Source: Sulfuritalea hydrogenivorans sk43H
Lineage (GTDB): Bacteria > Pseudomonadota > Gammaproteobacteria > Burkholderiales > Rhodocyclaceae
DNA: 36,191 nt
Assembly: GCA_945870205.1 (NCBI GenBank)
Contig: CAMBRI010000016.1
Coordinates: 1 to 36,191, forward strand
Reading direction: 5' to 3'
Of the stretch, positions 3,761 through 26,812 are shown one piece after another (positions within the stretch are counted from its first letter, which is position 1; the number at the start of each line of letters is the position of its first letter). The notes under the pieces are model-generated. The model was not told where the DNA came from. It saw only the letters and a list, made by a program, of their open reading frames with translations, and did no database searches. The position numbers and the translations under genes were made by a program.

Positions 3761-5236
3761 ATGAAAAGACAGGGATGCCGGGCACTGATCCGGCTGCTCA
3801 GCATTGCCACGCTGCTGGCGCCCGGCGCCGCGGTGGCCGGCGAGCAGGCCGAACGCGCCATGGCTGCGGTAAAGGGCCTGATTGCCTCGGGTGAAGTGCG
3901 TCCCGATGCCATCATCAAGGTTGCCTTCAAATCGGGAAACATTGCCGCCTTGCTGGGACCGGACCTCGAACTGCAAAAGGAGTGGGAGCAAAGCAGCGGT
4001 ATCAGGATCTCGGCGCGGGTGATTCCGCAGCAGCCGGCCTTGCTCAACCTGAAGGCGAATCCCGACATCGACCTGACAGTGGCTCGCACCAATGAATTTC
4101 CCGACCTGCTGGATCAGGGACTGGTCGAGGATCTGGCACCGCTGATCAAGCAATTCGGCTTTCAGGTCGACGGCATGCCGCCGCAGGGCTATATCCGGCC
4201 GCGCTTGCAGGGCTACTTTGGCGACAAACTGGTGGCGATCCCCGCCGATGGTGATGTCATCATCATGTATCTGCGTCGCGACCTGATGGAAAGCCCCGAC
4301 GAGCAGGCGGCGTTTCGCAAGGCCTACAAGCGCGAGCTCACGGTGCCCAGAACCTGGCAGGAATACGACCAGCTGGTGAGCTTCTTTCATCGGCCCGGAA
4401 AGGGGCTGTATGGGGTTGCCGAGCAGCGCGAACGGGCCGGCGGCTGGATGTTCTGGCTGCCTCGTTACCTGTCCCAGGCCGCGCCCTACAGCAGGCTGTT
4501 CGACGACAAATTGCGGCCGTTGATCGATTCGCCGGCGGGCATCGCCGCCACCGAGAGTTACGTGCATACCGTGCGTCATTCGCCGCCGGAGATTCTTGCC
4601 GACGGCAGCGACTACAGCTATACCTTGCCGCTGTTCATGCAAGGCAAGGTTTTCGCATCGGTGTTTACGATTGCAGGCGCCAAGCTGCTGAATTCGGTCG
4701 GGTCGACGGTGCGCGGCAAGTTCATCGCGGTTCCGATTCCCGGCAACCGGGTCGGCGAGCGGATCATTCGCCAGAACGTGCCGATCTATGGCAACAACAT
4801 GGTTGTTTCCAGTCGAGGCACGCAGCGCAAGTTGGCCTTTTTGCTCACCATGTGGTTGACCGATCCGGACAACTCGCTGCGCACCGTGGGCGTCAAGGGC
4901 GGATTCACCGATCCGTTTCGCTGGCATCACATCAAGGACAAGCGCATCCGGGAACTTTACACGCCCGAGGCGCTGGCGGTATTCAGCAAGGAATGGGCGG
5001 TTGCGCTGCCGCCCGGGACCGGTCTGCCGGGCGATGGCGAGTATCTCGATGCACTCGACCACAATCTCTGGCTGGCGGCGAGCGGCAAGCAGACCGCTGC
5101 CGAAGCGATGCGGCGCACGGCCCAGGAATGGGAGAAGATCACCCAGCTTCGAGGTCGTGACAAACAACTGCCGTGGCTAAAGATATTCAATGCGGGATTC
5201 GTCGCCAGCGTCTCCGGTGAGCGGCCCGTCAAGTAG
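3761..5236 (+). CDS. Periplasmic solute-binding protein, family 1 (no transporter partner)
   Basis: 491 residues. The ATG at 3761 is chosen because GGGGAG lies 7 nt before it and the protein then opens with a textbook signal peptide: MKRQGCR, a hydrophobic core (LLSIATLLAPGAAVA), then GEQAE. The rest resembles sugar/polyol-type extracellular solute-binding proteins: VAFKSGNIAALLGPDLELQK, a NPDIDLTVARTNEFPDLLDQG segment, LVAIPADGDVIIMYLRRDLM, and LFMQGKVFASVF. There is no permease or ATPase gene nearby. The next gene, 18 nt later, encodes a membrane GGDEF-EAL protein. The natural reading is a periplasmic ligand receptor that controls that enzyme, though direct contact is an inference. Ligand unknown. 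Confidence 0.8.
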   Translation: MKRQGCRALIRLLSIATLLAPGAAVAGEQAERAMAAVKGLIASGEVRPDAIIKVAFKSGNIAALLGPDLELQKEWEQSSGIRISARVIPQQPALLNLKANPDIDLTVARTNEFPDLLDQGLVEDLAPLIKQFGFQVDGMPPQGYIRPRLQGYFGDKLVAIPADGDVIIMYLRRDLMESPDEQAAFRKAYKRELTVPRTWQEYDQLVSFFHRPGKGLYGVAEQRERAGGWMFWLPRYLSQAAPYSRLFDDKLRPLIDSPAGIAATESYVHTVRHSPPEILADGSDYSYTLPLFMQGKVFASVFTIAGAKLLNSVGSTVRGKFIAVPIPGNRVGERIIRQNVPIYGNNMVVSSRGTQRKLAFLLTMWLTDPDNSLRTVGVKGGFTDPFRWHHIKDKRIRELYTPEALAVFSKEWAVALPPGTGLPGDGEYLDALDHNLWLAASGKQTAAEAMRRTAQEWEKITQLRGRDKQLPWLKIFNAGFVASVSGERPVK

Positions 5237-5254
5237 GTCGCCCCGGCACAAGTC

Positions 5255-7831
5255 ATGAAACTTCCTGCACGTTTTGGTCTGCTGCAGCAACTGCTTACCG
5301 GTTTTGCCGTTGGCGGTGCGCTGGTCGCACTCGTGATTTTCGCAGGCGACCAGATGCTCGACCGATCTTCGGAGCGGCTGGTCGCCACGCTCGAACGACA
5401 CGTGCGCCCTCTGGCCCGCATGCACACTCTCCAGTCGCGCTTTGGTGCTTTGCGCAATCTGGAACTCGAACTGGGACATTCGGACGACGTGTTCGCCTTG
5501 CAGACCCAGGTCACGCGCCTGCGCCGCGAAATCACGGCGGTCGACGCCGAGATCAACAAGTTCTCCGTCGGGCTCGGCGCTGAGGCGCCTGTAGAAGCCA
5601 TGCGGCTTGCCGGCCATTGGCGCGACTATCGCTCCCGTTTGGACCAGCAGGCCCGTTTGGCGGGCGAGATGGACCTTGCCGGCGTGCGCCGGATCACCGC
5701 GGCGGGTTCGCACATCCCCTTCCTTTCGATCCAGGCCGTACTGACCGATGTTGCCGCGCAGACGGAAGGCGCCGCGGATGCCGCGTACCTGAAGGCCGTC
5801 GAGGAACAGGGCAGGCAGCGGCGGGAATTCCTTCGACTCGTGATGATTGGCGCACTCGTGATGTTTGCCGGTCTGGCGTACTCGGGCCGTACCATCGTGC
5901 GCCGCATCGGCATCTTGCGCCAACATGCACAGCAACTGGCGGCGGGAGAAGTCAGCGGACAGATTGCGATCGCGCGTCACGACGAAATCGGCGATCTGGC
6001 CGCCGTATTCGAGGCCATGCGACAACAGGTGCTGACGCGTGAGGCAGCCCTGCGCGGCGCGCAGCAGGCGCTGGAGCAGCGTGTCGAGGAGCGCACGATT
6101 GACCTCCATCGCGCCAATCGCCGCCTGGTTCGCTTCTCGCAGGTGGTCGAACAGAATCCCGTTGGCATCCTGGTGGCGCGCATCGGAGGCGGGGTCGAAT
6201 TTGCCAATCCGGCCTATATGCGCATCACGGGTCAGTCGGAAGAGGATGTGATCGGACGTCCTCTGGCCGACGTTCTGCATACCGCCGACCCGCTCGATGC
6301 CGACAACGCCTTGCGGGTGGCGAGCGGCGGCGCCATTTGGGAGGTCGAGCAACCCAGCCGGCGCGGCGCCGATGCCTACTGGGAGCGCTTGCGGCTGGGA
6401 GTCGTGCGCAACGAACAGCGCCAGGCCACCCACTTGCTGTTGTCGCGCGAGGACATCACCCAGCAGCGGCAGCAAATGGAAAAGATTACCTACCAGGCAC
6501 ATTACGACATCCTGACCGGCCTGCCCAACCGGGTGCTCGGCAATGACCGCCTGGTGCAGGCGATCAACCGCTCGCGACGAGACGGCGGCAAGGCAGTGGC
6601 GATGTACATCGACCTCGACAATTTCAAGGAAGTCAACGACACGCTGGGCCATTCCGTCGGCGACATGCTGCTGCGCCTGGTGGCGCAGCGCCTGGTCGAG
6701 TCGATTCGCGGCGAGGATGTCGTGGCGCGGCTGGGAGGTGACGAATTTCTGGTGGTGGCCAGCGGCCTTACCCACGGTGACGAAGCCGCCGCGATTGCCG
6801 AGAAGATCCTTGCTGCCTTTTCCGTGCCCTTCCGGATCGACGAACGCGAACTGGTCACGTCGCCCAGCATCGGCGTTGCGGTCTATCCCGACGACGGTAC
6901 CGAGCCGATGGTATTGATGCGCAACGCCGACCTGGCCATGTACGAAGCCAAGGACTCGGGGCGCAACATGTATCGCTTCTACAACCGCTCGATCCACGAT
7001 CTTTCACTGCAGCGACTCGAAATTGGGCGTTGCCTGCGCGGTGCGCTGGAGCGCCAGGAACTGCATGTGGTCTACCATCCGCTGGTTCAGGCGGATAGCG
7101 GGACGATCATCGGCGCTGAAGCCCTGTTGCGCTGGACCAGTCCGGAACTGGGCGTCGTGGAGCCTGCGACTTTCATCCCTGTGGCGGAACAGAATGGCTT
7201 GATCGTCGATCTGGGACGCTGGGTGCTGCGCGAAGCCTGCGCCACCCTGGCGCGCTGGCGTCTGGATCAGATCGGTTTTGTCATGGCGGTGAATGTTTCG
7301 CCCAGACAATTCCGCACCAGCGGCTTTGTCGCCATGGTCAAGGAATGCCTCGACGAATTCCACGTGCCGCCGCAGCAACTCGAAATTGAGATCACCGAGG
7401 GCCTGCTGCTGCGCAACCAGGGCGAAGTAAAAATCATCCTTGACGAATTACACGCGCTTGGCGTGCGGCTATCCATGGATGACTTCGGTACCGGCTATTC
7501 CTCGCTAAGCTACCTGCGCGAGTTCCCGTTCCATACCGTGAAAATCGATCGCAGTTTCATTCACGATGTCTCGGAAGACCGGAGTGATCGCGCCCTGGTC
7601 ATCGCTGCGGTGCGCATGGCCCAGGCTCTGGGCCTGCAGATCATCGCCGAAGGCGTCGAGACCGACGAGCAGTGGTCATTCCTTGCTGCGCAGGACTGCG
7701 ACATCCTGCAAGGCTTCCGCTTCGGCATGCCGGTGACCGAAAGCAATTTCGGCAAGACCTGGGTCAATGCACGGGTAACCAGGCCAGAAGCGGAAGGACA
7801 GTCGACCAGCGTGCCTTTCATCCCGATCTGA
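5255..7831 (+). CDS. Membrane HAMP-PAS-GGDEF-EAL cyclic-di-GMP enzyme
   Basis: 858 residues. A first membrane segment (about 8-30) and a second (about 193-212, LVMIGALVMFAGLAYSG) enclose a periplasmic domain of about 160 residues. A HAMP linker follows, with HDEIGDLAAVFEAM, then a PAS domain (about 290-405; NPVGILVARIGGGVEFANPA). The diguanylate cyclase motif GGDEF is intact at 494-498, with an RxxD inhibitory site (RGED) five residues before it. The phosphodiesterase motif EAL is at 622-624, with NVSPRQF, EITEG and DDFGTGYSS (742-750) also intact. Both activities are therefore possible, and the net direction cannot be read from sequence. The gene starts 18 nt after a solute-binding protein gene, so its periplasmic domain probably senses that protein. 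Confidence 0.93.
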   Translation: MKLPARFGLLQQLLTGFAVGGALVALVIFAGDQMLDRSSERLVATLERHVRPLARMHTLQSRFGALRNLELELGHSDDVFALQTQVTRLRREITAVDAEINKFSVGLGAEAPVEAMRLAGHWRDYRSRLDQQARLAGEMDLAGVRRITAAGSHIPFLSIQAVLTDVAAQTEGAADAAYLKAVEEQGRQRREFLRLVMIGALVMFAGLAYSGRTIVRRIGILRQHAQQLAAGEVSGQIAIARHDEIGDLAAVFEAMRQQVLTREAALRGAQQALEQRVEERTIDLHRANRRLVRFSQVVEQNPVGILVARIGGGVEFANPAYMRITGQSEEDVIGRPLADVLHTADPLDADNALRVASGGAIWEVEQPSRRGADAYWERLRLGVVRNEQRQATHLLLSREDITQQRQQMEKITYQAHYDILTGLPNRVLGNDRLVQAINRSRRDGGKAVAMYIDLDNFKEVNDTLGHSVGDMLLRLVAQRLVESIRGEDVVARLGGDEFLVVASGLTHGDEAAAIAEKILAAFSVPFRIDERELVTSPSIGVAVYPDDGTEPMVLMRNADLAMYEAKDSGRNMYRFYNRSIHDLSLQRLEIGRCLRGALERQELHVVYHPLVQADSGTIIGAEALLRWTSPELGVVEPATFIPVAEQNGLIVDLGRWVLREACATLARWRLDQIGFVMAVNVSPRQFRTSGFVAMVKECLDEFHVPPQQLEIEITEGLLLRNQGEVKIILDELHALGVRLSMDDFGTGYSSLSYLREFPFHTVKIDRSFIHDVSEDRSDRALVIAAVRMAQALGLQIIAEGVETDEQWSFLAAQDCDILQGFRFGMPVTESNFGKTWVNARVTRPEAEGQSTSVPFIPI

Positions 7832-7921
7832 TTCTTCCTCAGACGCCATCAAACGGGCGTTGTGCTTTATGATTGAAGGATTCGACCAAGCGCCGTACGA
7901 GCGTTGACACGCAGGGAGATA

Positions 7922-8944
7922 ATGATGTTGCCGAAGGCTCTGAGCAAGGCGCTGGCTGCCGCGCTGACGCTGCTTTGCGCGTTTTCCGTTGCTGCACAGA
8001 CCCTGCAGATTTCGGTCAGTGTGCCGGGGCCGGGTGCTGCTTCCTACCTGCCGGTTGCTCTGATTTCGAAAATCGGCGCCGATCGGGCCGAGGGTGCCCA
8101 GGTCAGGGTGCAGTATGTTTCCGGCGGCGGGGTGGCCGCCCAGGAAATGCTGTCGAACAACACCGAGTTCGCCGTGTTCGGGCTGCCCGCCGCAATGACG
8201 TCCCGGCTCAAGGATTCGCGCGTTGTCGCCCTGGCGGCGATCAATGACCTGCCGCTCTATGTGCTGCTGGTGCGCAGCGGCCTGCAGGGAAAAGTCAAAT
8301 CGGTAGCGGACCTCAAGGGCCGCGTGATCGGCGTGCACAGCAATTCGATCACGACCAAGACCAATTCGCACATCGTCATGGAGTTGCTGCTGAGGAATGC
8401 GGGCGTGGCGCCGGACAGCGTCCGTTTCGTCTCGGTGGGCCAGCGCTGGTCTTCCGAGGCGGCGATGCTCGCCGACGGTTCGGCCGATGCCATCATGGGC
8501 GACGAGCCGCATGCCTCGCGCATGGTGGCGGACAATGCCGCCTTCCAGCTTGTGCACCTGGGTGATCCGCAGACGTCTAGCAGCATCCAGGGCGGCGCCT
8601 TTCTGCGTGGTGCCCTAGTCGGCCGGCAGGACCGGATCGACCAGGATCCGAAGAAGGCCGCGGCCATGGTCAGGATAATCCGACGCACCCTTGAATGGAT
8701 GGCCAGCCACACGCCCGAGGAAGTGATCGACATGGCCGGCATAGATGATCCGGTGGAGCGTAAATACATGCTGGCGACCATGCGCAAATATCCGCGACAG
8801 TACAGCAAGGACGGAAAGTTCTCCACGCGCCAGTTGCAGGACACCGAGCTTTTTTTTCGCAAATCTCAGGCCGGCAATAGCGCGGCGCAAACCCTCAAGG
8901 TGGAATCGATGATCATCGACCGCTTTGCCGGGCGCAAGGACTGA
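7922..8944 (+). CDS. NMT1/SsuA-like periplasmic substrate-binding protein
   Basis: 340 residues from ATG 7922; a second ATG follows directly at 7925. AGGGAG at 7913-7918 fits either, and a TTG at 7904 is less likely because it lies upstream of that site. A signal peptide (ALSKALAAALTLLCAFSVAAQ) is followed by a fold typical of NMT1/THI5/SsuA binding proteins: VPGPGAASYLPVALISKIG, GGGVAAQEMLSNNTEFAVFG, VADLKGRVIGVHSNS and DAIMGDEPHASRM. Such proteins bind sulfonates, nitrate, pyrimidine precursors and related small molecules. No ABC permease or ATPase is present. Instead the gene is followed 5 nt later by a second membrane GGDEF-EAL gene, repeating the arrangement just upstream with a different binding-protein family. 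Ligand unknown. Confidence 0.82.
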   Translation: MMLPKALSKALAAALTLLCAFSVAAQTLQISVSVPGPGAASYLPVALISKIGADRAEGAQVRVQYVSGGGVAAQEMLSNNTEFAVFGLPAAMTSRLKDSRVVALAAINDLPLYVLLVRSGLQGKVKSVADLKGRVIGVHSNSITTKTNSHIVMELLLRNAGVAPDSVRFVSVGQRWSSEAAMLADGSADAIMGDEPHASRMVADNAAFQLVHLGDPQTSSSIQGGAFLRGALVGRQDRIDQDPKKAAAMVRIIRRTLEWMASHTPEEVIDMAGIDDPVERKYMLATMRKYPRQYSKDGKFSTRQLQDTELFFRKSQAGNSAAQTLKVESMIIDRFAGRKD

Positions 8945-8949
8945 GGTTC

Positions 8950-11900
8950 ATGCCGGAATCGCTGCGCCATCCGCTGACCCGGCAGATTGCCGTGCGCCTC
9001 GCGCTGGCGCTGCTGGTGACCATCCTGACGACCGTCGCGCTGGCGGTATGGTTCTATGCCCAGGCCAACCAGCGCTTTCTCGAAAAGCATATTCGTCAGG
9101 CTGAGAAGTACTATGGCAGCGCTCTGGCGCTACAGGAGGTCGAGTGGGAGCGCGGCGCCTACAACTTCAAGGCCCGGCTCGAGTACTCGCGCGTGCTGGA
9201 GGATAGAGCCGGGCGTCAGGCCCGGCTCAGCAATTTCATCACCGCGCAAGGCGGCGTGCCCGACTATCCGATGGTCGTCGTCCTCGATCACGAGGGCAAT
9301 CGCCTGAATACGTTTGCCTACGCCCAGGGTCGCATTCCGCCGGCGGTCTTCGATATCGGCGACTCCGGCTGGGCGTATGACGAAACCGAAAACCGGCTTT
9401 ACCGGGCATTTCGCCAGCAGGTCTGGCTGGGTGCGGGGCAGAATGGGACATTGATCACCTTTCGCCCCGTCGATCATGCGGTGCTCGGCGCTCTGGCCTA
9501 TCCCGAGACGCAACTGGTGGCCTTGTGGCACAAGCGCCCGGTGGCCAGTTCGCGCGGCGATGACGGCCTGGAGTCGATCGGACCTGAACACACTGCCGGT
9601 GTAGGCGTGAGCCAGAGTCTGCTGCCGTGGAGTCAGGCGCAACCGGACAACCCTCGAGTGCTGCTGCGGATTAATCCCGACGAACCGTTTACGTTTGCCG
9701 AACTGGCTCAACCATTGGGATTGGGCGCACTAGTGTTTGCGCTGGCCACCTGGATCACTCTTGGCCTGTGGGCGACCAGCCTTGTGCGCCGCGTGCTTGC
9801 CTTGCGCGCGGCACACCAGGAATTCGCGGGCGCGCGCGACGCCTCACCGCGGGTGATTTCGGCTCTGAACGACGCGCAACCCGACCGGGGCGACGAACTC
9901 GCCGATCTTGCGCGCTCCCTGCGAGACATGATGGCGGATGTCGCCCAGCACGAGGGCGAGTTGCAGAGCGCCACGGAGGTACTGCACCAGAGCGAAGAGC
10001 GCTATCGCTTTCTGGTGGAGGGGGCGCGGGTTGTCGCCTGGGAGTTCTCGGCGGCGGCGGCGCGCTTCAGCTATGTGTCGCCGAGGGCCGAAGACTTGCT
10101 TGGTTACCCGGTCAAGGACTGGCTGCAGCCGGGCTTCATCGATTTGCATGTGCATCCGGACGACATGGGGCGCGTCGCCGAAGCGCGTTCACTGGCGCTC
10201 GGCACGGGTTCCGGTTGCTCGCTCGACTATCGTCTGCGCCATCGTGACGGGCATTTCATCTGGGTACATCACCTGTCCGCCGCTGCCGCTAGCACCGATC
10301 CGCAGGCCAATTCGATGATACGCGGCATCCTGCTCGACATCAGCGAACGCAAACAACTCGAACAGCGTCTGGCACTGGCCGGTCTGGTGTTCGAAACGGC
10401 GAGCGAAGGCATCATGCTGACCGATGCGCAGAACCGCATCATTTCGGTCAACCCGGCCTTCGAGGCCATTACCGGTTATAGCGGCAACGAGGTGATGGGC
10501 AAGGATCCCAAGCTGCTCAATGCCGGATTGCAGACGGCCGATCACTACCAGGCGATGTGGCAGGGACTGCAGCAGGACGATTGCTGGGAGGGCGACGTGT
10601 GGAACCGGCGCAAATCGGGCGAATCGTTTGCGCAGCGGCTTTCGGTGTCGATCATCCGCGACGAGTGGGGCCATATCAAGAGCCATCTGGCGATGTTCAG
10701 CGACGTCACGACACAGAAGCGGCAGGCCGAGGAAATCGAGCACCAGGCCGCCCACGATGCGCTGACCGGCCTGCCCAATCGGCGCCTGCTCGCCGACCGC
10801 ATGACGCAGGCCATCGCGCGCGCGCAGCGTCAGAGCGGGCGAGTTGGAATCATGATGCTTGATCTGGACGGCTTCAAGCACATCAACGACACGCTCGGCC
10901 ATCGTGTCGGCGATCTGCTGCTGATCGATACGGCGCGCCGCCTGGCCCATTGCGTGCGCGAATCGGATACCGTGGCGCGGGTCGGCGGCGACGAATTCAT
11001 GGTGGTACTGCCGGAAATTCAGGGTCAGAACGACCTTCAGGCCCTGGCGGTGAAAATCCTCGACCACCTCGGTGAGCCCTTCAATATCGAGGGCAAGGAA
11101 CTCTTCATCTCGGCCAGCATTGGCCTTACCTTGTATCCCAATGATGGAGATACGCCAGAGGTACTACTGGCCCATGCCGACACCGCGATGTATCGGGCCA
11201 AGTACGACGGCAAGGACACCTACCGCTTTTTCACGGCGCAGATGCACGAACATGCGCTGGCGCGGTTGCAACTGGAAGATGCCTTGCGCCGCGGACTGCG
11301 CGATGGGGAGTTCGTGCTCCATTTCCAGCCGGTGTTCGAACTGGCGAGCGGGCGCATGGCGAAGGCCGAAGCGCTCATTCGCTGGCAGGATCCTCAGCGC
11401 GGACTGATCGATCCGATCGACTTCATTCCGGTCGCCGAGGACACCGGGTTGATCGTGTCGATCGGCGCCTGGGTCGTAAAAGCCGCCGCCGCACAGGCGG
11501 CGCAATGGCGCGACCTGGCGCCGGTGGATTTTCGCATCGGCGTCAATCTGTCGGCCCAGCAGTTTCAGCGCGCCGACTGCGTCGGCTTGTGGCGCGACGC
11601 CCTGGCAGAGCAGGGTGCCAAGGCAAGCCAGTTCGTGGTCGAGATCACGGAGAGCCTGTTCATCGACGATCAGGGTGATGCCCGCTACCAGCTCAACGAG
11701 ATCAAGGCGCTTGGCATCCAGGTCGCGATCGATGACTTCGGTACCGGCTTTTCATCGCTGAGTTATCTGAAACGCTTTCCGGTCGACACCCTGAAAATCG
11801 ACCAGTCGTTTGTCGCTGGCATTCCGGATGATCCGGAGGACACGGCACTGGTCGAGGCGATCGTCTCGATGAGCCGTGCGCTGAGCCTGCAGGTCGTTGC

Positions 11901-12027
11901 CGAAGGGATCGAAACCGAAGCCCAGCGCAGCTTTCTTGCCGGTCTTGGCTGCCAGTACGGGCAGGGCTACTTATTCGGCCGCGCCTTGCCGGCGGCCGAG
12001 TTTGCGAAACTCTTCCTGCGCGGCTAG
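8950..12027 (+). CDS. Membrane PAS-PAS-GGDEF-EAL cyclic-di-GMP enzyme
   Basis: 1025 residues. A membrane segment (about 14-36) is followed by a large periplasmic sensor region (about 40-255, CHASE-like by position, not firmly assigned), then a second membrane segment (about 256-280) and a HAMP-like linker with DELADLARSLRDMM. Two PAS domains follow (about 344-470 and 476-590; the second has EGIMLTDAQNRIISVNPAFE). GGDEF is intact at 679-683 with the RxxD inhibitory site (RESD) before it. EAL is intact at 807-809 with NLSAQQF, EITES and DDFGTGFSS (928-936). It could make or degrade cyclic-di-GMP. It lies 5 nt after the NMT1-like binding protein gene, so that protein is probably its periplasmic input. 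The domain order and sensor region differ from the upstream GGDEF-EAL protein, so this is not a simple recent duplicate. Confidence 0.93.
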   Translation: MPESLRHPLTRQIAVRLALALLVTILTTVALAVWFYAQANQRFLEKHIRQAEKYYGSALALQEVEWERGAYNFKARLEYSRVLEDRAGRQARLSNFITAQGGVPDYPMVVVLDHEGNRLNTFAYAQGRIPPAVFDIGDSGWAYDETENRLYRAFRQQVWLGAGQNGTLITFRPVDHAVLGALAYPETQLVALWHKRPVASSRGDDGLESIGPEHTAGVGVSQSLLPWSQAQPDNPRVLLRINPDEPFTFAELAQPLGLGALVFALATWITLGLWATSLVRRVLALRAAHQEFAGARDASPRVISALNDAQPDRGDELADLARSLRDMMADVAQHEGELQSATEVLHQSEERYRFLVEGARVVAWEFSAAAARFSYVSPRAEDLLGYPVKDWLQPGFIDLHVHPDDMGRVAEARSLALGTGSGCSLDYRLRHRDGHFIWVHHLSAAAASTDPQANSMIRGILLDISERKQLEQRLALAGLVFETASEGIMLTDAQNRIISVNPAFEAITGYSGNEVMGKDPKLLNAGLQTADHYQAMWQGLQQDDCWEGDVWNRRKSGESFAQRLSVSIIRDEWGHIKSHLAMFSDVTTQKRQAEEIEHQAAHDALTGLPNRRLLADRMTQAIARAQRQSGRVGIMMLDLDGFKHINDTLGHRVGDLLLIDTARRLAHCVRESDTVARVGGDEFMVVLPEIQGQNDLQALAVKILDHLGEPFNIEGKELFISASIGLTLYPNDGDTPEVLLAHADTAMYRAKYDGKDTYRFFTAQMHEHALARLQLEDALRRGLRDGEFVLHFQPVFELASGRMAKAEALIRWQDPQRGLIDPIDFIPVAEDTGLIVSIGAWVVKAAAAQAAQWRDLAPVDFRIGVNLSAQQFQRADCVGLWRDALAEQGAKASQFVVEITESLFIDDQGDARYQLNEIKALGIQVAIDDFGTGFSSLSYLKRFPVDTLKIDQSFVAGIPDDPEDTALVEAIVSMSRALSLQVVAEGIETEAQRSFLAGLGCQYGQGYLFGRALPAAEFAKLFLRG

Positions 12028-12222: not shown

Positions 12223-13362
12223 ATGAAGGCAAGAAAACTCGCATGGGTTCAGACCATTGCACTGGTTCTGGCGGCAGGGTCGGCCTGGGCCGACATCACC
12301 ATCGGCGTCAGCGTATCGGCCACCGGCCCGGCAGCGTCGCTGGGCATCCCGGAAAAACAGACCTTCGCGCTGCTGCCGCAGACGGTGGGTGGTGAAAAGG
12401 TCAAATACATTGTGCTCGACGATGCCACCGACCCCAGCACGGCGGTTAAGAATGCGCGCAAGTTTACCGGCGAGGACAAGGTGGATGCGATCATCGGCTC
12501 GACCGCGACCCCCACCTCGATGGCGATTCTGGAAGTGGCGTTTGAAACAAAGACTCCGCAGATAGCCATGGCGCCGCTGCCGCCGGCCGGCGACAAGGCG
12601 CCCTGGGTATTCACCACGCCACAGAACTTTACCCAGATGGCCATTGCGATTGCCGCGCACATGGCGGCCAACAACGTCAAGACCATCGGCTTCATCGGCT
12701 ACGCCGATCCCTACGGCCAGCTCTGGCTGAAGGCGATCCAGGGTGCGGCCGAGGCCAAGGGCATCAAGATCACGGCGTCGGAGGCCTACCAGCGTGCCGA
12801 TACCAGCGTTACCGGGCAGGCGCTCAAACTGCTTGCGGCAAACCCCGACGCGATCCTGATTGCGGGTTCCGGCACGCCCGCCGTGCTGCCACAATCGACG
12901 CTGATCGAGCGCGGCTACAAGGGCAAGTTCTACCAGACGCACGGCATTGCCAACCGCGACTTCCTGCGTGTCGGCGGCAAGAATGTCGAGGGCACGATAT
13001 TCCCGGTCGGCCCGATGCTCCTGGCCGAGCAGTTGGCCGACAGCCATCCGTCGAAGAAGGCGGCGCTGGAGTACATCAAGGTGTATGAAGCGGCGCACGG
13101 TGCCAACAGCCGCTCGACCTTTGGCGGTCATGGCTGGGACGCCTATCTGCTGCTGAATCGTGCCGTACCGGAAGCGCTGAAGAAAGCCAAGCCCGGCACG
13201 GTCGAGTTTCGCATCGCCTTGCGCGAGTCGTTGGAGAACGTCAAGGAACTTCCCGGAGTTCACGGCGTATTCAACATGTCGGCCAAGGATCACAACGGCT
13301 TCGACGGCCGTGCCGCCGTCATGGCCACCATCGAAAATGGTGACTGGAAACTGCTCAAGTAG
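12223..13362 (+). CDS. LivK-like branched-chain amino-acid-type binding protein
   Basis: 379 residues. A full AGGAGG at 12213-12218 lies 4 nt before the ATG. The signal peptide (TIALVLAAGSAWA) is followed by ITIGVSVSATGPAASLGIPE, the entry motif of periplasmic binding proteins of the branched-chain amino-acid type (Peripla_BP_6). Further segments are DDATDPSTAVKNARKFTGED, the VDAIIGSTATPTSMA loop that contacts ligands, and GFIGYADPYGQLWLK. Proteins of this family bind leucine-type amino acids, amides, or aromatic and organic acids. No liv permease or ATPase genes accompany it in the window, which makes it the third orphan binding protein in a row. It may serve a transporter encoded elsewhere or be another sensor. 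Ligand not predictable. Confidence 0.88.
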   Translation: MKARKLAWVQTIALVLAAGSAWADITIGVSVSATGPAASLGIPEKQTFALLPQTVGGEKVKYIVLDDATDPSTAVKNARKFTGEDKVDAIIGSTATPTSMAILEVAFETKTPQIAMAPLPPAGDKAPWVFTTPQNFTQMAIAIAAHMAANNVKTIGFIGYADPYGQLWLKAIQGAAEAKGIKITASEAYQRADTSVTGQALKLLAANPDAILIAGSGTPAVLPQSTLIERGYKGKFYQTHGIANRDFLRVGGKNVEGTIFPVGPMLLAEQLADSHPSKKAALEYIKVYEAAHGANSRSTFGGHGWDAYLLLNRAVPEALKKAKPGTVEFRIALRESLENVKELPGVHGVFNMSAKDHNGFDGRAAVMATIENGDWKLLK

Positions 13363-25906: not shown

Positions 25907-26293
25907 TTACCAGATGCGTTTGATGCCGTAGTCCGAAAAGGCCCGATCGGAACTGACGACGGGTAGCTTGCGGTTTTTTGCCTGCGCGACCAGCAGCCGA
26001 TCGAAGGGGTCGCGGTGATGCAGGGGCAGGTTTTCGATGGCAGCGACGTCATCGAGTTCGATGCCGAGCAGGCGAAAGCCGTTGGCCTCGATATGGCTGG
26101 CCACATAGCGGCCTACGGGTTGCGCCAGTCTGATGCCGCCCTGACCGGACTTGATTGCCAGTTCCCATGCTACAACGACGCTGACGAGGATTTCGTTGTC
26201 GGGATTGGCAATGCAGGATTTCGCCTTGACGGACAGTTTGTCATCGCCTTCCACCCAGCGCAGGAAGGCGTTCGTGTCCAGCAGCGCAATCAC
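25907..26293 (-). CDS. PIN-domain toxin paired with a Phd-type antitoxin
   Basis: 128 residues with a GTG start. It begins MIALLDTNAFLRWVEGDD (first Asp at residue 6), has AWELAIKSGQGG with the central Glu, and HHRDPFDRLLVAQA with a conserved Asp, ending with VVSSDRAFSDYG. This composition is typical of the PIN subfamily that pairs with Phd/YefM antitoxins. It should be a metal-dependent ribonuclease. The start codon overlaps the antitoxin stop (GTGA), giving translational coupling. All conserved acidic residues are present, so it looks intact. It is distinct from the PIN protein at 943-1371. Confidence 0.87.
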   Translation of the reverse strand: MIALLDTNAFLRWVEGDDKLSVKAKSCIANPDNEILVSVVVAWELAIKSGQGGIRLAQPVGRYVASHIEANGFRLLGIELDDVAAIENLPLHHRDPFDRLLVAQAKNRKLPVVSSDRAFSDYGIKRIW

Positions 26294-26520
26294 TTGGTGT
26301 AATCCTCGAAGCCTTGCGGGATCGCGTCGAAGTTCTCGGCCATGAAGAGGATTTGTCCCTTGCCCGAGCCGGGCGCGCGCTTCTGCCGTGCGCGCTTGAT
26401 CGGCACCAGCATCGCCAGCGGCTTATTGTCGCGGGCGATGACGATTTCCTCGCCCATCATGGCTTTCTGTACCAACTCCGAGAGATGGGCCTTGGCTTCG
26501 GCGATGTTGAATTGCTGCAT
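26290..26520 (-). CDS. Phd/YefM-family antitoxin
   Basis: 76 residues from ATG 26520, chosen because AAGGAG is five nt upstream; longer frames would include the operator. The sequence MQQFNIAEAKAHLSELVQKA is the classic Phd/YefM N-terminal DNA-binding start, followed by GEEIVIARDNKPLAMLVPI. The remaining tail is expected to neutralise the toxin. It precedes the PIN toxin gene in the usual antitoxin-first order. A 12-bp palindrome covering the -10 box lies 15-39 nt upstream, as expected for autoregulation. Confidence 0.9.
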   Translation of the reverse strand: MQQFNIAEAKAHLSELVQKAMMGEEIVIARDNKPLAMLVPIKRARQKRAPGSGKGQILFMAENFDAIPQGFEDYTK

Positions 26521-26534
26521 GGGGGCTCCTTCAG

Positions 26535-26559
26535 TGTTGGTCATTTTAAATGACCAACA
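26535..26559. promoter_or_regulatory. 12-bp inverted repeat, probable Phd operator
   Basis: TGTTGGTCATTT (26535-26546) and its exact complement (26548-26559) flank one T. The site overlaps the candidate -10 box and ends 15 nt before the antitoxin start, so bound antitoxin would block RNA polymerase. Confidence 0.75.
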
Positions 26560-26571
26560 ACGGCGGGTCAA
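26543..26571 (-). promoter_or_regulatory. Promoter of the Phd/PIN toxin-antitoxin pair
   Basis: On the minus strand TTGACC (26571-26566) and TAAAAT (26548-26543) are separated by exactly 17 nt, each five of six consensus bases. It is the clearest sigma-70 promoter in the window. The -10 lies within the operator palindrome. Confidence 0.75.
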
Positions 26572-26687
26572 GGTGTGGGCTGCGGAGATTACGGAAGGTT
26601 GGAGCGTGGTTCGGTGTGAATGAGGCTCGCCGTGGTCCGGTTGCGGTCGTCTCGTTTCAATAGTTAAAGTCGGCGCTGGTGAGACGG

Positions 26688-26731
26688 TGGTTCTCGGGCT
26701 TATGTTGAGCTCAACATAAGCCCGAGAACCA
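26688..26731. repeat. 44-bp perfect palindrome
   Basis: Two 22-bp arms (26688-26709 and 26710-26731) are exact complements with no spacer. Outside them, 26670-26687 matches the complement of 26785-26802 at 17 of 18 positions. The whole is therefore an inverted duplication with about 53 nt present only on the right side. It lies between the Phd promoter and the mfd relic. Such a structure would extrude a cruciform and is normally unstable. Confidence 0.9.
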
Positions 26732-26812
26732 GCCCTTGCTCCAGTCCTCCAACCCGCAGCCGATTTCATTGAACTCGGCGACCGCCGTCTCGCCAGCGCC
26801 GAGTTTTTTCAT
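26711..26812 (-). CDS. Small hypothetical ORF coupled to the mfd relic
   Basis: A 33-codon frame whose ATG shares one base with the TGA of the relic (TGATG). It starts MKKLGAGETAVAEF and ends in GWFSGLC, with its stop inside the right arm of the palindrome. I do not recognise it. It may be the truncated start of the gene that once followed the donor mfd, or chance. Confidence 0.25.
   Translation of the reverse strand: MKKLGAGETAVAEFNEIGCGLEDWSKGWFSGLC

What the first reader, a model, noticed from the sequence alone, without database searches (positions are those of the whole stretch)
3761..12027. Two tandem 'orphan binding protein plus membrane GGDEF-EAL' cassettes
A family 1 solute-binding protein gene sits 18 nt before a HAMP-PAS-GGDEF-EAL gene, and an NMT1-like binding protein gene sits 5 nt before a PAS-PAS-GGDEF-EAL gene. 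No ABC permease or ATPase is present. Two unrelated binding-protein families serving the same genetic layout suggests a reusable sensory design: periplasmic receptor, membrane transducer, cyclic-di-GMP output. Both enzymes keep GGDEF, the RxxD inhibitory site and the EAL catalytic motifs, so binding could switch between synthesis and breakdown.
Basis: partly seen in the sequence, partly recalled or inferred. Interest (0 to 1): 0.75.

Follow-up and report, generated by a model that had tools for sequence, protein, structure and literature searches.

The report
Binding-protein-gated c-di-GMP receptors in tandem
Two bacterial receptors that control the signal molecule cyclic-di-GMP each seem to smell the outside world through a separate partner binding protein encoded just before them, a partnership that relatives keep even when they swap the receptor's inner output part for a different one.

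Summary
Two gene pairs lie head to tail: SBP_bac_8-type binding protein + HAMP-PAS-GGDEF-EAL, and NMT1-type binding protein + PAS-PAS-GGDEF-EAL, with no transporter genes found nearby. The pairing is far more than chance. For pair B, 48 of 50 relatives from a genome scan carry the same membrane sensor in the next gene; one exception is a contig end, the other (L088) shows no sensor. In 200 genomes of the order, the 8 with a close SBP_B are exactly the 8 with the full-length sensor, in one of them (G088) on different contigs. Distant homologues instead mostly sit near ABC genes (16 of 18 stretches for A, 8 of 13 for B). The sensor is predicted to be Cache-like; no Pfam model names it. SBP and sensor stay together while the output changes: GGDEF-EAL, GGDEF or histidine kinase, at least 6 changes on a 48-row tree. 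Pair A also has a histidine-kinase version. A third pair of another SBP family lies elsewhere in the same genome. Best reading: SBP-gated receptors of the NspS-MbaA kind, in families I found no description of. Ligand, direct contact and direction of the c-di-GMP change are untested.

The parts
3761..5236 (+). SBP_A: periplasmic binding protein, SBP_bac_8/SBP_bac_1 family, with an N-terminal Sec-type signal peptide (AVA-GEQ, judged by eye)
   Evidence: relatives L085 75%, L086 74%, L141 56%, L044 49%
5255..7831 (+). Receptor A: TM - about 160-residue periplasmic part in which Pfam recognises no domain - TM - HAMP - PAS - GGDEF - EAL
   Evidence: sensor part kept with SBP_A
5255..6100 (+). Sensor A (both membrane helices, periplasmic part, HAMP): the part shared with L085, L086, L044, L141, L167, L168
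7922..8944 (+). SBP_B: periplasmic binding protein, NMT1/THI5-like family, with an N-terminal signal peptide (judged by eye)
   Evidence: AlphaFold model mean pLDDT 94.3; best PDB match 3qsl by sequence and by fold
8950..12027 (+). Receptor B: TM - periplasmic Cache-like sensor - TM - HAMP-like linker (HAMP below cut-off) - PAS - PAS - GGDEF - EAL
8950..9969 (+). Sensor B (residues 1-340): the part kept with SBP_B while the output varies; no Pfam domain above cut-off; predicted Cache-like fold

Best explanation
Each pair is an SBP-gated membrane receptor. The binding protein is exported to the periplasm and catches a small ligand, but it has no transporter of its own in sight; instead the ligand-loaded (or ligand-free) form docks on the periplasmic sensor domain of the enzyme encoded by the next gene. 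Docking moves the two membrane helices and the HAMP or HAMP-like linker, and so changes the balance of c-di-GMP synthesis (GGDEF) and breakdown (EAL) inside the cell. Binding protein and sensor form one input unit that evolution keeps together while it changes the output domain (GGDEF-EAL, GGDEF alone, or histidine kinase). The window carries two such units with unrelated inputs in tandem, so two different ligands probably feed one c-di-GMP pool. Shown by computation: pairing, co-occurrence, lack of transporter genes nearby, predicted Cache-like sensor fold, output change. Inferred: direct contact, signal path, that the enzymes are active (motifs are intact). Unknown: ligands and direction of the effect; breakdown as the resting activity is only a guess by analogy with MbaA.
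For: Pair B: 48 of 50 genome-scan loci have the sensor in the next gene, median spacing 4 nt, 15 of 48 overlapping (start codons picked by a script). Reverse search in 369 genomes of the class: 5 of 5 sensors, window's own included, lie directly behind SBP_B. In 200 genomes of the order the 8 genomes with close SBP_B (180 bits or more) are the same 8 with full sensor (260 bits or more), and in G088 the two genes are on different contigs. Sensor distances follow SBP distances (r 0.866) better than those of the GGDEF domain in the same polypeptide (0.73); partial r 0.762, 0 of 2000 permutations as high, 29 rows. The output label changes at least 6 times on the SBP+sensor tree. Pair A: six GGDEF-EAL versions, window included, and one hybrid histidine kinase, all with sensor A. 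Tandem A+B order seen in L085 and L086 (SBP_A of L086 cut at its start), and consistent in L083 and L084, whose contigs begin inside receptor A. Transport split: ABC genes within 3 kb of 16 of 18 distant SBP_A and 8 of 13 distant SBP_B stretches, and of 0 of 8 close ones; a permease in 1 of 57 stretches. Third pair in the same genome. Precedent: NspS-MbaA (PMC8079147, passages read).
Against: No physical contact was tested and a complex could not be modelled with these tools. Two of nine strong sensor copies in the order lie without an SBP beside them (L195/L199, L198/L200), and a 114-bit relative of sensor A (G180, L205) has none. One of 50 SBP_B loci (L088) shows no sensor behind it; L068 (34%) neither. 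The four best SBP_A relatives of a phylum search beyond the window's own (205 to 209 bits, L148-L151 = L160-L163) are in ABC operons, although weaker ones (132 to 174 bits) stand beside receptors, so SBP_A's wider family is mixed. Operon inheritance alone raises the SBP-sensor correlation, and the profile A1 was built from genes already known to be paired. Cache domains often bind ligands by themselves, so the SBP may only help. Permeases could lie elsewhere in these draft genomes.
Confidence: 0.8

Rival explanations
1. The binding proteins are ordinary transport SBPs that share a permease coded elsewhere; the neighbouring enzyme only reports nutrient supply and is co-expressed without contact.
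For: SBP_A and SBP_B belong to transport families; most distant homologues are near ABC genes. Transport and signalling by one SBP is known (PMC11113362, introduction read). Permeases elsewhere in the genome were not searched for.
Against: No permease near any of 8 close relatives, one in 57 stretches; own genome has no second SBP_B- or SBP_A-like match at E<=1e-20; the sensor domain, not just any enzyme, is kept with the SBP while the output changes.
Confidence: 0.1
2. The Cache-like sensor binds the ligand itself and the SBP only concentrates or hands over the ligand. This overlaps with the best explanation, since the SBP would still meet the sensor.
For: Sensor B model resembles ligand-binding Cache domains of chemoreceptors and DctB; two strong sensor copies have no SBP gene beside them.
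Against: All 8 genomes of the order with the strong sensor also hold the SBP, and sensor distances track SBP distances; Foldseek matches are distant (TM-score 0.5 or less).
Confidence: 0.25
3. The SBP is a constitutive inhibitor or activator subunit that responds to envelope state, not to a small ligand, in the way recalled for YfiR-YfiN.
For: Ligand unknown; orphan SBPs could have lost binding.
Against: The SBP_B model matches ligand-bound NMT1-fold structures (ThiY-like 3ix1, SsuA, PqqT); the family stays well conserved (mean column identity 49% over 46 rows).
Confidence: 0.08
4. Chance neighbourhood or assembly artefact.
For: The window is one contig of a draft genome, 85% complete, 4% contamination.
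Against: The same pair order occurs in 48 of 50 other records.
Confidence: 0.01

Closest known systems
NspS-MbaA (polyamine sensing, Vibrio cholerae and Sinorhizobium meliloti)
   Same: Periplasmic binding protein coded directly before, or overlapping, a membrane GGDEF-EAL protein with a periplasmic domain (PMC8079147 and PMC9993111, passages read).
   Different: SBP_B is NMT1-type; SBP_A's profile finds MalE/trehalose-type and no PotD chains in the PDB at E<=0.001; MbaA has SGDEF/EVL motifs, these have GGDEF and EAL; here the same sensors also drive histidine kinases.
SBP-activated sensor histidine kinases such as AioX-AioS and the couples discussed in PMC11113362
   Same: SBP gene beside the receptor gene; the histidine-kinase versions of pairs A and B look like this. 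PMC11113362 states that 10 of 11 characterised couples are neighbours (introduction read).
   Different: AioX is compared with PhnD in PMC5908839 (passages read); no AioX chain matches the SBP_B profile, though P0003 just passes Pfam's Phosphonate-bd cut-off (27.5 against 27 bits). Here output type differs among close relatives.
VpvABC of V. cholerae (predicted porin, periplasmic binding protein, diguanylate cyclase)
   Same: Predicted periplasmic protein plus membrane diguanylate cyclase (PMC12456836, passage read).
   Different: Three genes with a porin; sequence relation not tested.
3QSL, Bordetella bronchiseptica CAE31940
   Same: Closest solved structure to SBP_B (E 3.4e-31 by profile; TM-score 0.81-0.86 by fold).
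   Different: Called only 'putative exported protein'; its ligand and gene neighbours were not examined here.

Membership tests
SBP-gated receptor systems (kind) | Exported binding protein coded next to a membrane receptor, conserved across genomes | tested here: met
   48 of 50; 7 of 9 strong sensors in the order
SBP-gated receptor systems (kind) | Binding protein physically binds the receptor's periplasmic domain | not testable with these tools
   No complex modelling of two chains available
SBP-gated receptor systems (kind) | Binding protein changes receptor output | not testable with these tools
   Needs experiment
NspS-MbaA | Binding protein of the PotD/PotF polyamine type | tested here: not met
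   SBP_B is NMT1, so not met for B; for A, the profile finds MalE3 and trehalose/maltose-binding protein but no PotD at E<=0.001, and a remote link through the broad SBP_bac_8 family is not excluded
NspS-MbaA | Membrane GGDEF-EAL protein in the next gene | tested here: met
NspS-MbaA | MbaA-like periplasmic domain | not tested
   MbaA sequence was not fetched
ABC-transporter SBP | Permease and ATPase genes beside the SBP | tested here: not met
   0 of 8 close relatives; window none; genes elsewhere in the genomes not searched
AioX/ArrX oxyanion sensors | AioX-type (PhnD-like) sequence | tested here: not met
   No AioX chain at E<=0.01 with the SBP_B profile; against this, P0003 just passes Pfam Phosphonate-bd (27.5 against 27 bits)
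Cache sensor domains | Cache fold | tested here: inconclusive
   Foldseek E 1e-5 to 1e-3 to many Cache structures but TM-score at most 0.50 with the long helices included
Cache sensor domains | Match to a Cache profile | tested here: not met
   No Cache model in Pfam at E<=1 for any of 7 members
Active dual GGDEF-EAL enzymes | GGDEF, RxxD and EAL catalytic motifs | tested here: met
   Read; activity itself not tested

The most novel reading that the evidence does not exclude
SBP plus sensor is a portable two-gene input cartridge: binding proteins that have left transport altogether and, with their own Cache-like sensor, are plugged by recombination near the linker onto c-di-GMP enzymes or histidine kinases, and are collected by one cell (three families in this genome, two in tandem) to feed several outside signals into one c-di-GMP pool.
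Probability: 0.5. Interest if true: 0.65.

Novelty: new variant of a known kind. Interest (0 to 1): 0.5.

Why it matters
Signals for most GGDEF-EAL receptors are unknown (general knowledge). If orphan binding proteins are their true ligand sensors, the ligand can be found by screening a soluble, easily purified protein rather than the membrane enzyme. The pairs also give a natural experiment in which one input unit is joined to different outputs, and they mark a Cache-like sensor family that Pfam does not name.

Tried and rejected
Chance neighbourhood: rejected by conservation. Transport operon: no permease or ATPase found nearby. AioX or PotD membership: not supported by profile searches. Downstream SBP gene P0005 (Peripla_BP_6) as part of the cassette: no P0005-like protein at E<=1e-5 in the 56 other stretches searched, so left out. 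Mirror-tree first run gave undefined values from a log transform; repeated with plain distances, and only one search is used. VIA-align was not available. A permease search beyond neighbourhoods was not done. Sensor A was not folded (few usable relatives; both jobs went to sensor B and SBP_B).

What the counts hold. That scan used one peptide pattern (175 stretches matched, 50 encode a relative), so it is a sample. Tree: 48 of 53 SBP-sensor rows kept; rows with under 250 residues of SBP or sensor dropped; L105 was labelled histidine kinase by hand after reading, and L108 carried no label. Distances: the 29 rows with both GGDEF and EAL. The 13 distant SBP_B stretches hold 14 of the 15 distant matches; L043 was not widened.

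Full report
What is there. Gaps are 18 and 5 nt. Both enzymes keep GGDEF, RxxD and EAL motifs (read). The window is a whole contig, G000:C16, of a 4.44-Mb draft genome. No ABC permease or ATPase was found in it.

Conservation, first look. In 200 genomes of the order, SBP_A has one close relative (51%, G012), and it too is followed by a sensor-A-like protein with GGDEF and EAL. SBP_B has seven relatives of at least 32%. Six of the seven are followed by a protein with the same N-terminal sensor; the seventh (L068, in G088) is not. Outputs differ: histidine kinase (L063, L064), GGDEF-EAL (L065, L067, L069), GGDEF alone (L066); one search shows the sequences, and Pfam finds HisKA and HATPase_c in L089, the same record as L064.

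Conservation, larger scan of pair B. A scan of the genome-contig collection (84,980 species by the tool's description) with one peptide pattern from the SBP_B alignment gave 50 loci. In 48 of 50 the next ORF carries the sensor. L129 ends inside the SBP; in L088 no sensor was seen. Spacing, with start codons chosen by a script, runs from -22 to 256 nt, median 4, with 37 of 48 at 44 nt or less. Outputs of the 48: 28 GGDEF-EAL (2 cut by the contig end), 12 histidine kinase (1 cut), 2 GGDEF, 6 with none seen. Of these six, 4 are cut by the contig end (L105 shows the start of a kinase domain), L110 is interrupted with GGDEF-EAL in a neighbouring frame, and L130 ends in PAS plus an unnamed tail. Outputs were called by blastp with one to two reference domains each, not by Pfam for every row. 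Two records are not metagenome bins: Rhodoferax lacus IMCC26218 and Sulfuricella sp. T08. By record title the bins are mostly betaproteobacteria, with four Magnetococcales, three Gammaproteobacteria, one Alphaproteobacteria and one Desulfobulbaceae.

Reverse test. The sensor profile in 369 genomes of the class hit 5 places in 4 genomes, 5 of 5 directly behind SBP_B, the window's own included. In 200 genomes of the order there were 11 hits: 9 at 260 bits or more in 8 genomes, and 2 weak ones (77 and 64 bits, without SBP_B). Of the 9, 7 lie directly behind SBP_B and 2 do not: a second copy in G182, and the copy in G088. The 8 genomes are exactly those with SBP_B at 180 bits or more, where the next genome scores 94 bits. 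In G088 the SBP (contig 22) and sensor (contig 32) are on different contigs, so co-presence is not only linkage. This is not corrected for kinship (six family codes), and the profiles were built partly from some of these records.

Co-variation. For 29 pairs with GGDEF and EAL, SBP and sensor distances correlate at 0.866, SBP with GGDEF 0.643 and with EAL 0.597, sensor with GGDEF of its own chain 0.73 and with EAL 0.703; the partial correlation of SBP and sensor given both output domains is 0.762, reached by 0 of 2000 permutations. In a reduced set of 21 rows SBP-sensor is 0.798 against 0.46 for SBP-GGDEF. Over all 48 rows it is 0.728, in 16 kinase rows 0.632. Shared inheritance of an operon raises all such values.

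Output change. On a tree of 48 SBP+sensor rows (47 labelled) the three output labels need 6 changes; branches with at least 95% support force at least 4 for GGDEF-EAL and 4 for the kinase label. Close relatives L092, L097 (GGDEF-EAL) and L098 (kinase) show it directly. The tree used the quick method without bootstrap.

Transport versus signalling. As a control, ABC permease and ATPase genes were sought near the homologues (39 stretches): present within 3 kb in 16 of 18 distant SBP_A stretches and 8 of 13 distant SBP_B stretches, absent in 1 of 1 close SBP_A and 7 of 7 close SBP_B. One distant SBP_A without ABC genes (L056) is followed by a hybrid histidine kinase (read); the other (L054) and five distant SBP_B stretches show neither ABC genes nor an adjacent receptor that I recognised. 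In the 57 stretches (window, 50 scan loci, 6 further), one (L114) has a permease with an ATPase, on the other strand about 5 kb from SBP_B; L101, L126 and L131 show an ATPase only. Many loci are cut by contig ends, so absence is a neighbourhood statement.

Pair A. Close SBP_A with sensor A next to it: window, L085, L086, L044, L167, L168 (GGDEF-EAL) and L141 (HAMP, HisKA, HATPase, receiver), 7 of 7 where the junction is visible; L142 ends inside the SBP, and L083 and L084 begin inside the receptor. The wider family is mixed. Four phylum relatives at 205 to 209 bits lie in ABC operons (L160-L163), while weaker ones (132 to 174 bits) stand beside other receptors: L143 (kinase without sensor A), L164 (kinase without a membrane helix), L165 (kinase) and L169 (GGDEF-EAL without sensor A); L166 shows none next to it. 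A 114-bit relative of sensor A in G180 has no SBP beside it. Pair A is rare: strong in 3 of 101 genomes of the family, and the two same-genus genomes in that search lack SBP_A.

Tandem and third pair. The order SBP_A, receptor A, SBP_B, receptor B is seen in L085 (Rhodocyclales bin) and L086 (Sulfuritalea bin; its SBP_A is cut at the contig start) and is consistent in L083 and L084. In L044, L141, L167 and L168 pair A stands without pair B in the stretch fetched. SBP_B is doubled in L102 and L115. Of 20 EAL matches in the window's genome, the 18 others were fetched. One (L177) has a Peripla_BP_4 binding protein directly before a PAS x3-GGDEF-EAL protein, GTG start 7 nt after the SBP stop. The upstream genes of the others were judged only by reading; several stretches are cut by contig ends, and in three (L185-L187) the EAL gene was not found again by blastp.

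Structure. Sensor B: AlphaFold mean pLDDT 91.9; Foldseek's first match is an integrative chemoreceptor model, followed by Cache domains of chemoreceptors, DctB and a diguanylate cyclase, E from about 1e-5, TM-scores 0.5 or less; no Cache model in Pfam, no PDB sequence match. SBP_B: pLDDT 94.3; best fold 3qsl, then ThiY-like, THI5, SsuA, PqqT. The ligand cannot be named: these relatives bind pyrimidines, sulfonates or PQQ.

Comparison with what is known. SBP-gated receptors are an accepted kind. Receptors of several types are activated by SBPs of at least 13 families, SBP_bac_8 included, and couples are often neighbours (PMC11113362, introduction read; PMC9602780, passages). NspS-MbaA is the c-di-GMP example (PMC8079147 and PMC9993111, passages). 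The c-di-GMP sensing review PMC8846402 (passages) names ArtI with STM1987; the term NspS was not found in it. In the listings of paper searches I saw no description of NMT1-type or SBP_A-type partners of GGDEF-EAL proteins. Those searches cover open-licence PMC papers, I saw titles and starts of abstracts, and one search listed 15 of 73 papers.

Verdict. Observation confirmed; design supported; a new variant of a known kind, with output change under a constant input as its most interesting feature. Mechanistic steps beyond pairing remain inference.

Noticed in passing
window 12223-13362 (+): A further orphan binding protein gene (Peripla_BP_6, 379 aa) follows receptor B; its neighbours are QueF and SMC, with no receptor or permease beside it, and no similar protein was found in the 56 other stretches searched.
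   Followed up: partly
L177 (G000:C282): Third SBP plus GGDEF-EAL pair in the same genome: Peripla_BP_4 protein before a PAS x3-GGDEF-EAL protein.
   Followed up: partly
L102 6893-9003 and L115 6830-9105: Two SBP_B copies in tandem before one sensor, possibly two ligand specificities for one receptor.
   Followed up: no
L130 433-2037: Sensor B joined to PAS and a short C-terminal cysteine-containing tail with no Pfam output domain.
   Followed up: no
L119 4113-6887 and L123 4102-6882: Another GGDEF-EAL gene directly upstream of SBP_B, so the binding protein lies between two c-di-GMP enzymes.
   Followed up: no
L110 239-1291: SBP_B reading frame split by a stop in a draft contig, sensor and GGDEF-EAL also in separate frames; sequencing error or decay cannot be told apart.
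   Followed up: no
window 25910-26769 (-): PIN-domain and Phd/YefM-type genes side by side, a likely toxin-antitoxin pair.
   Followed up: no
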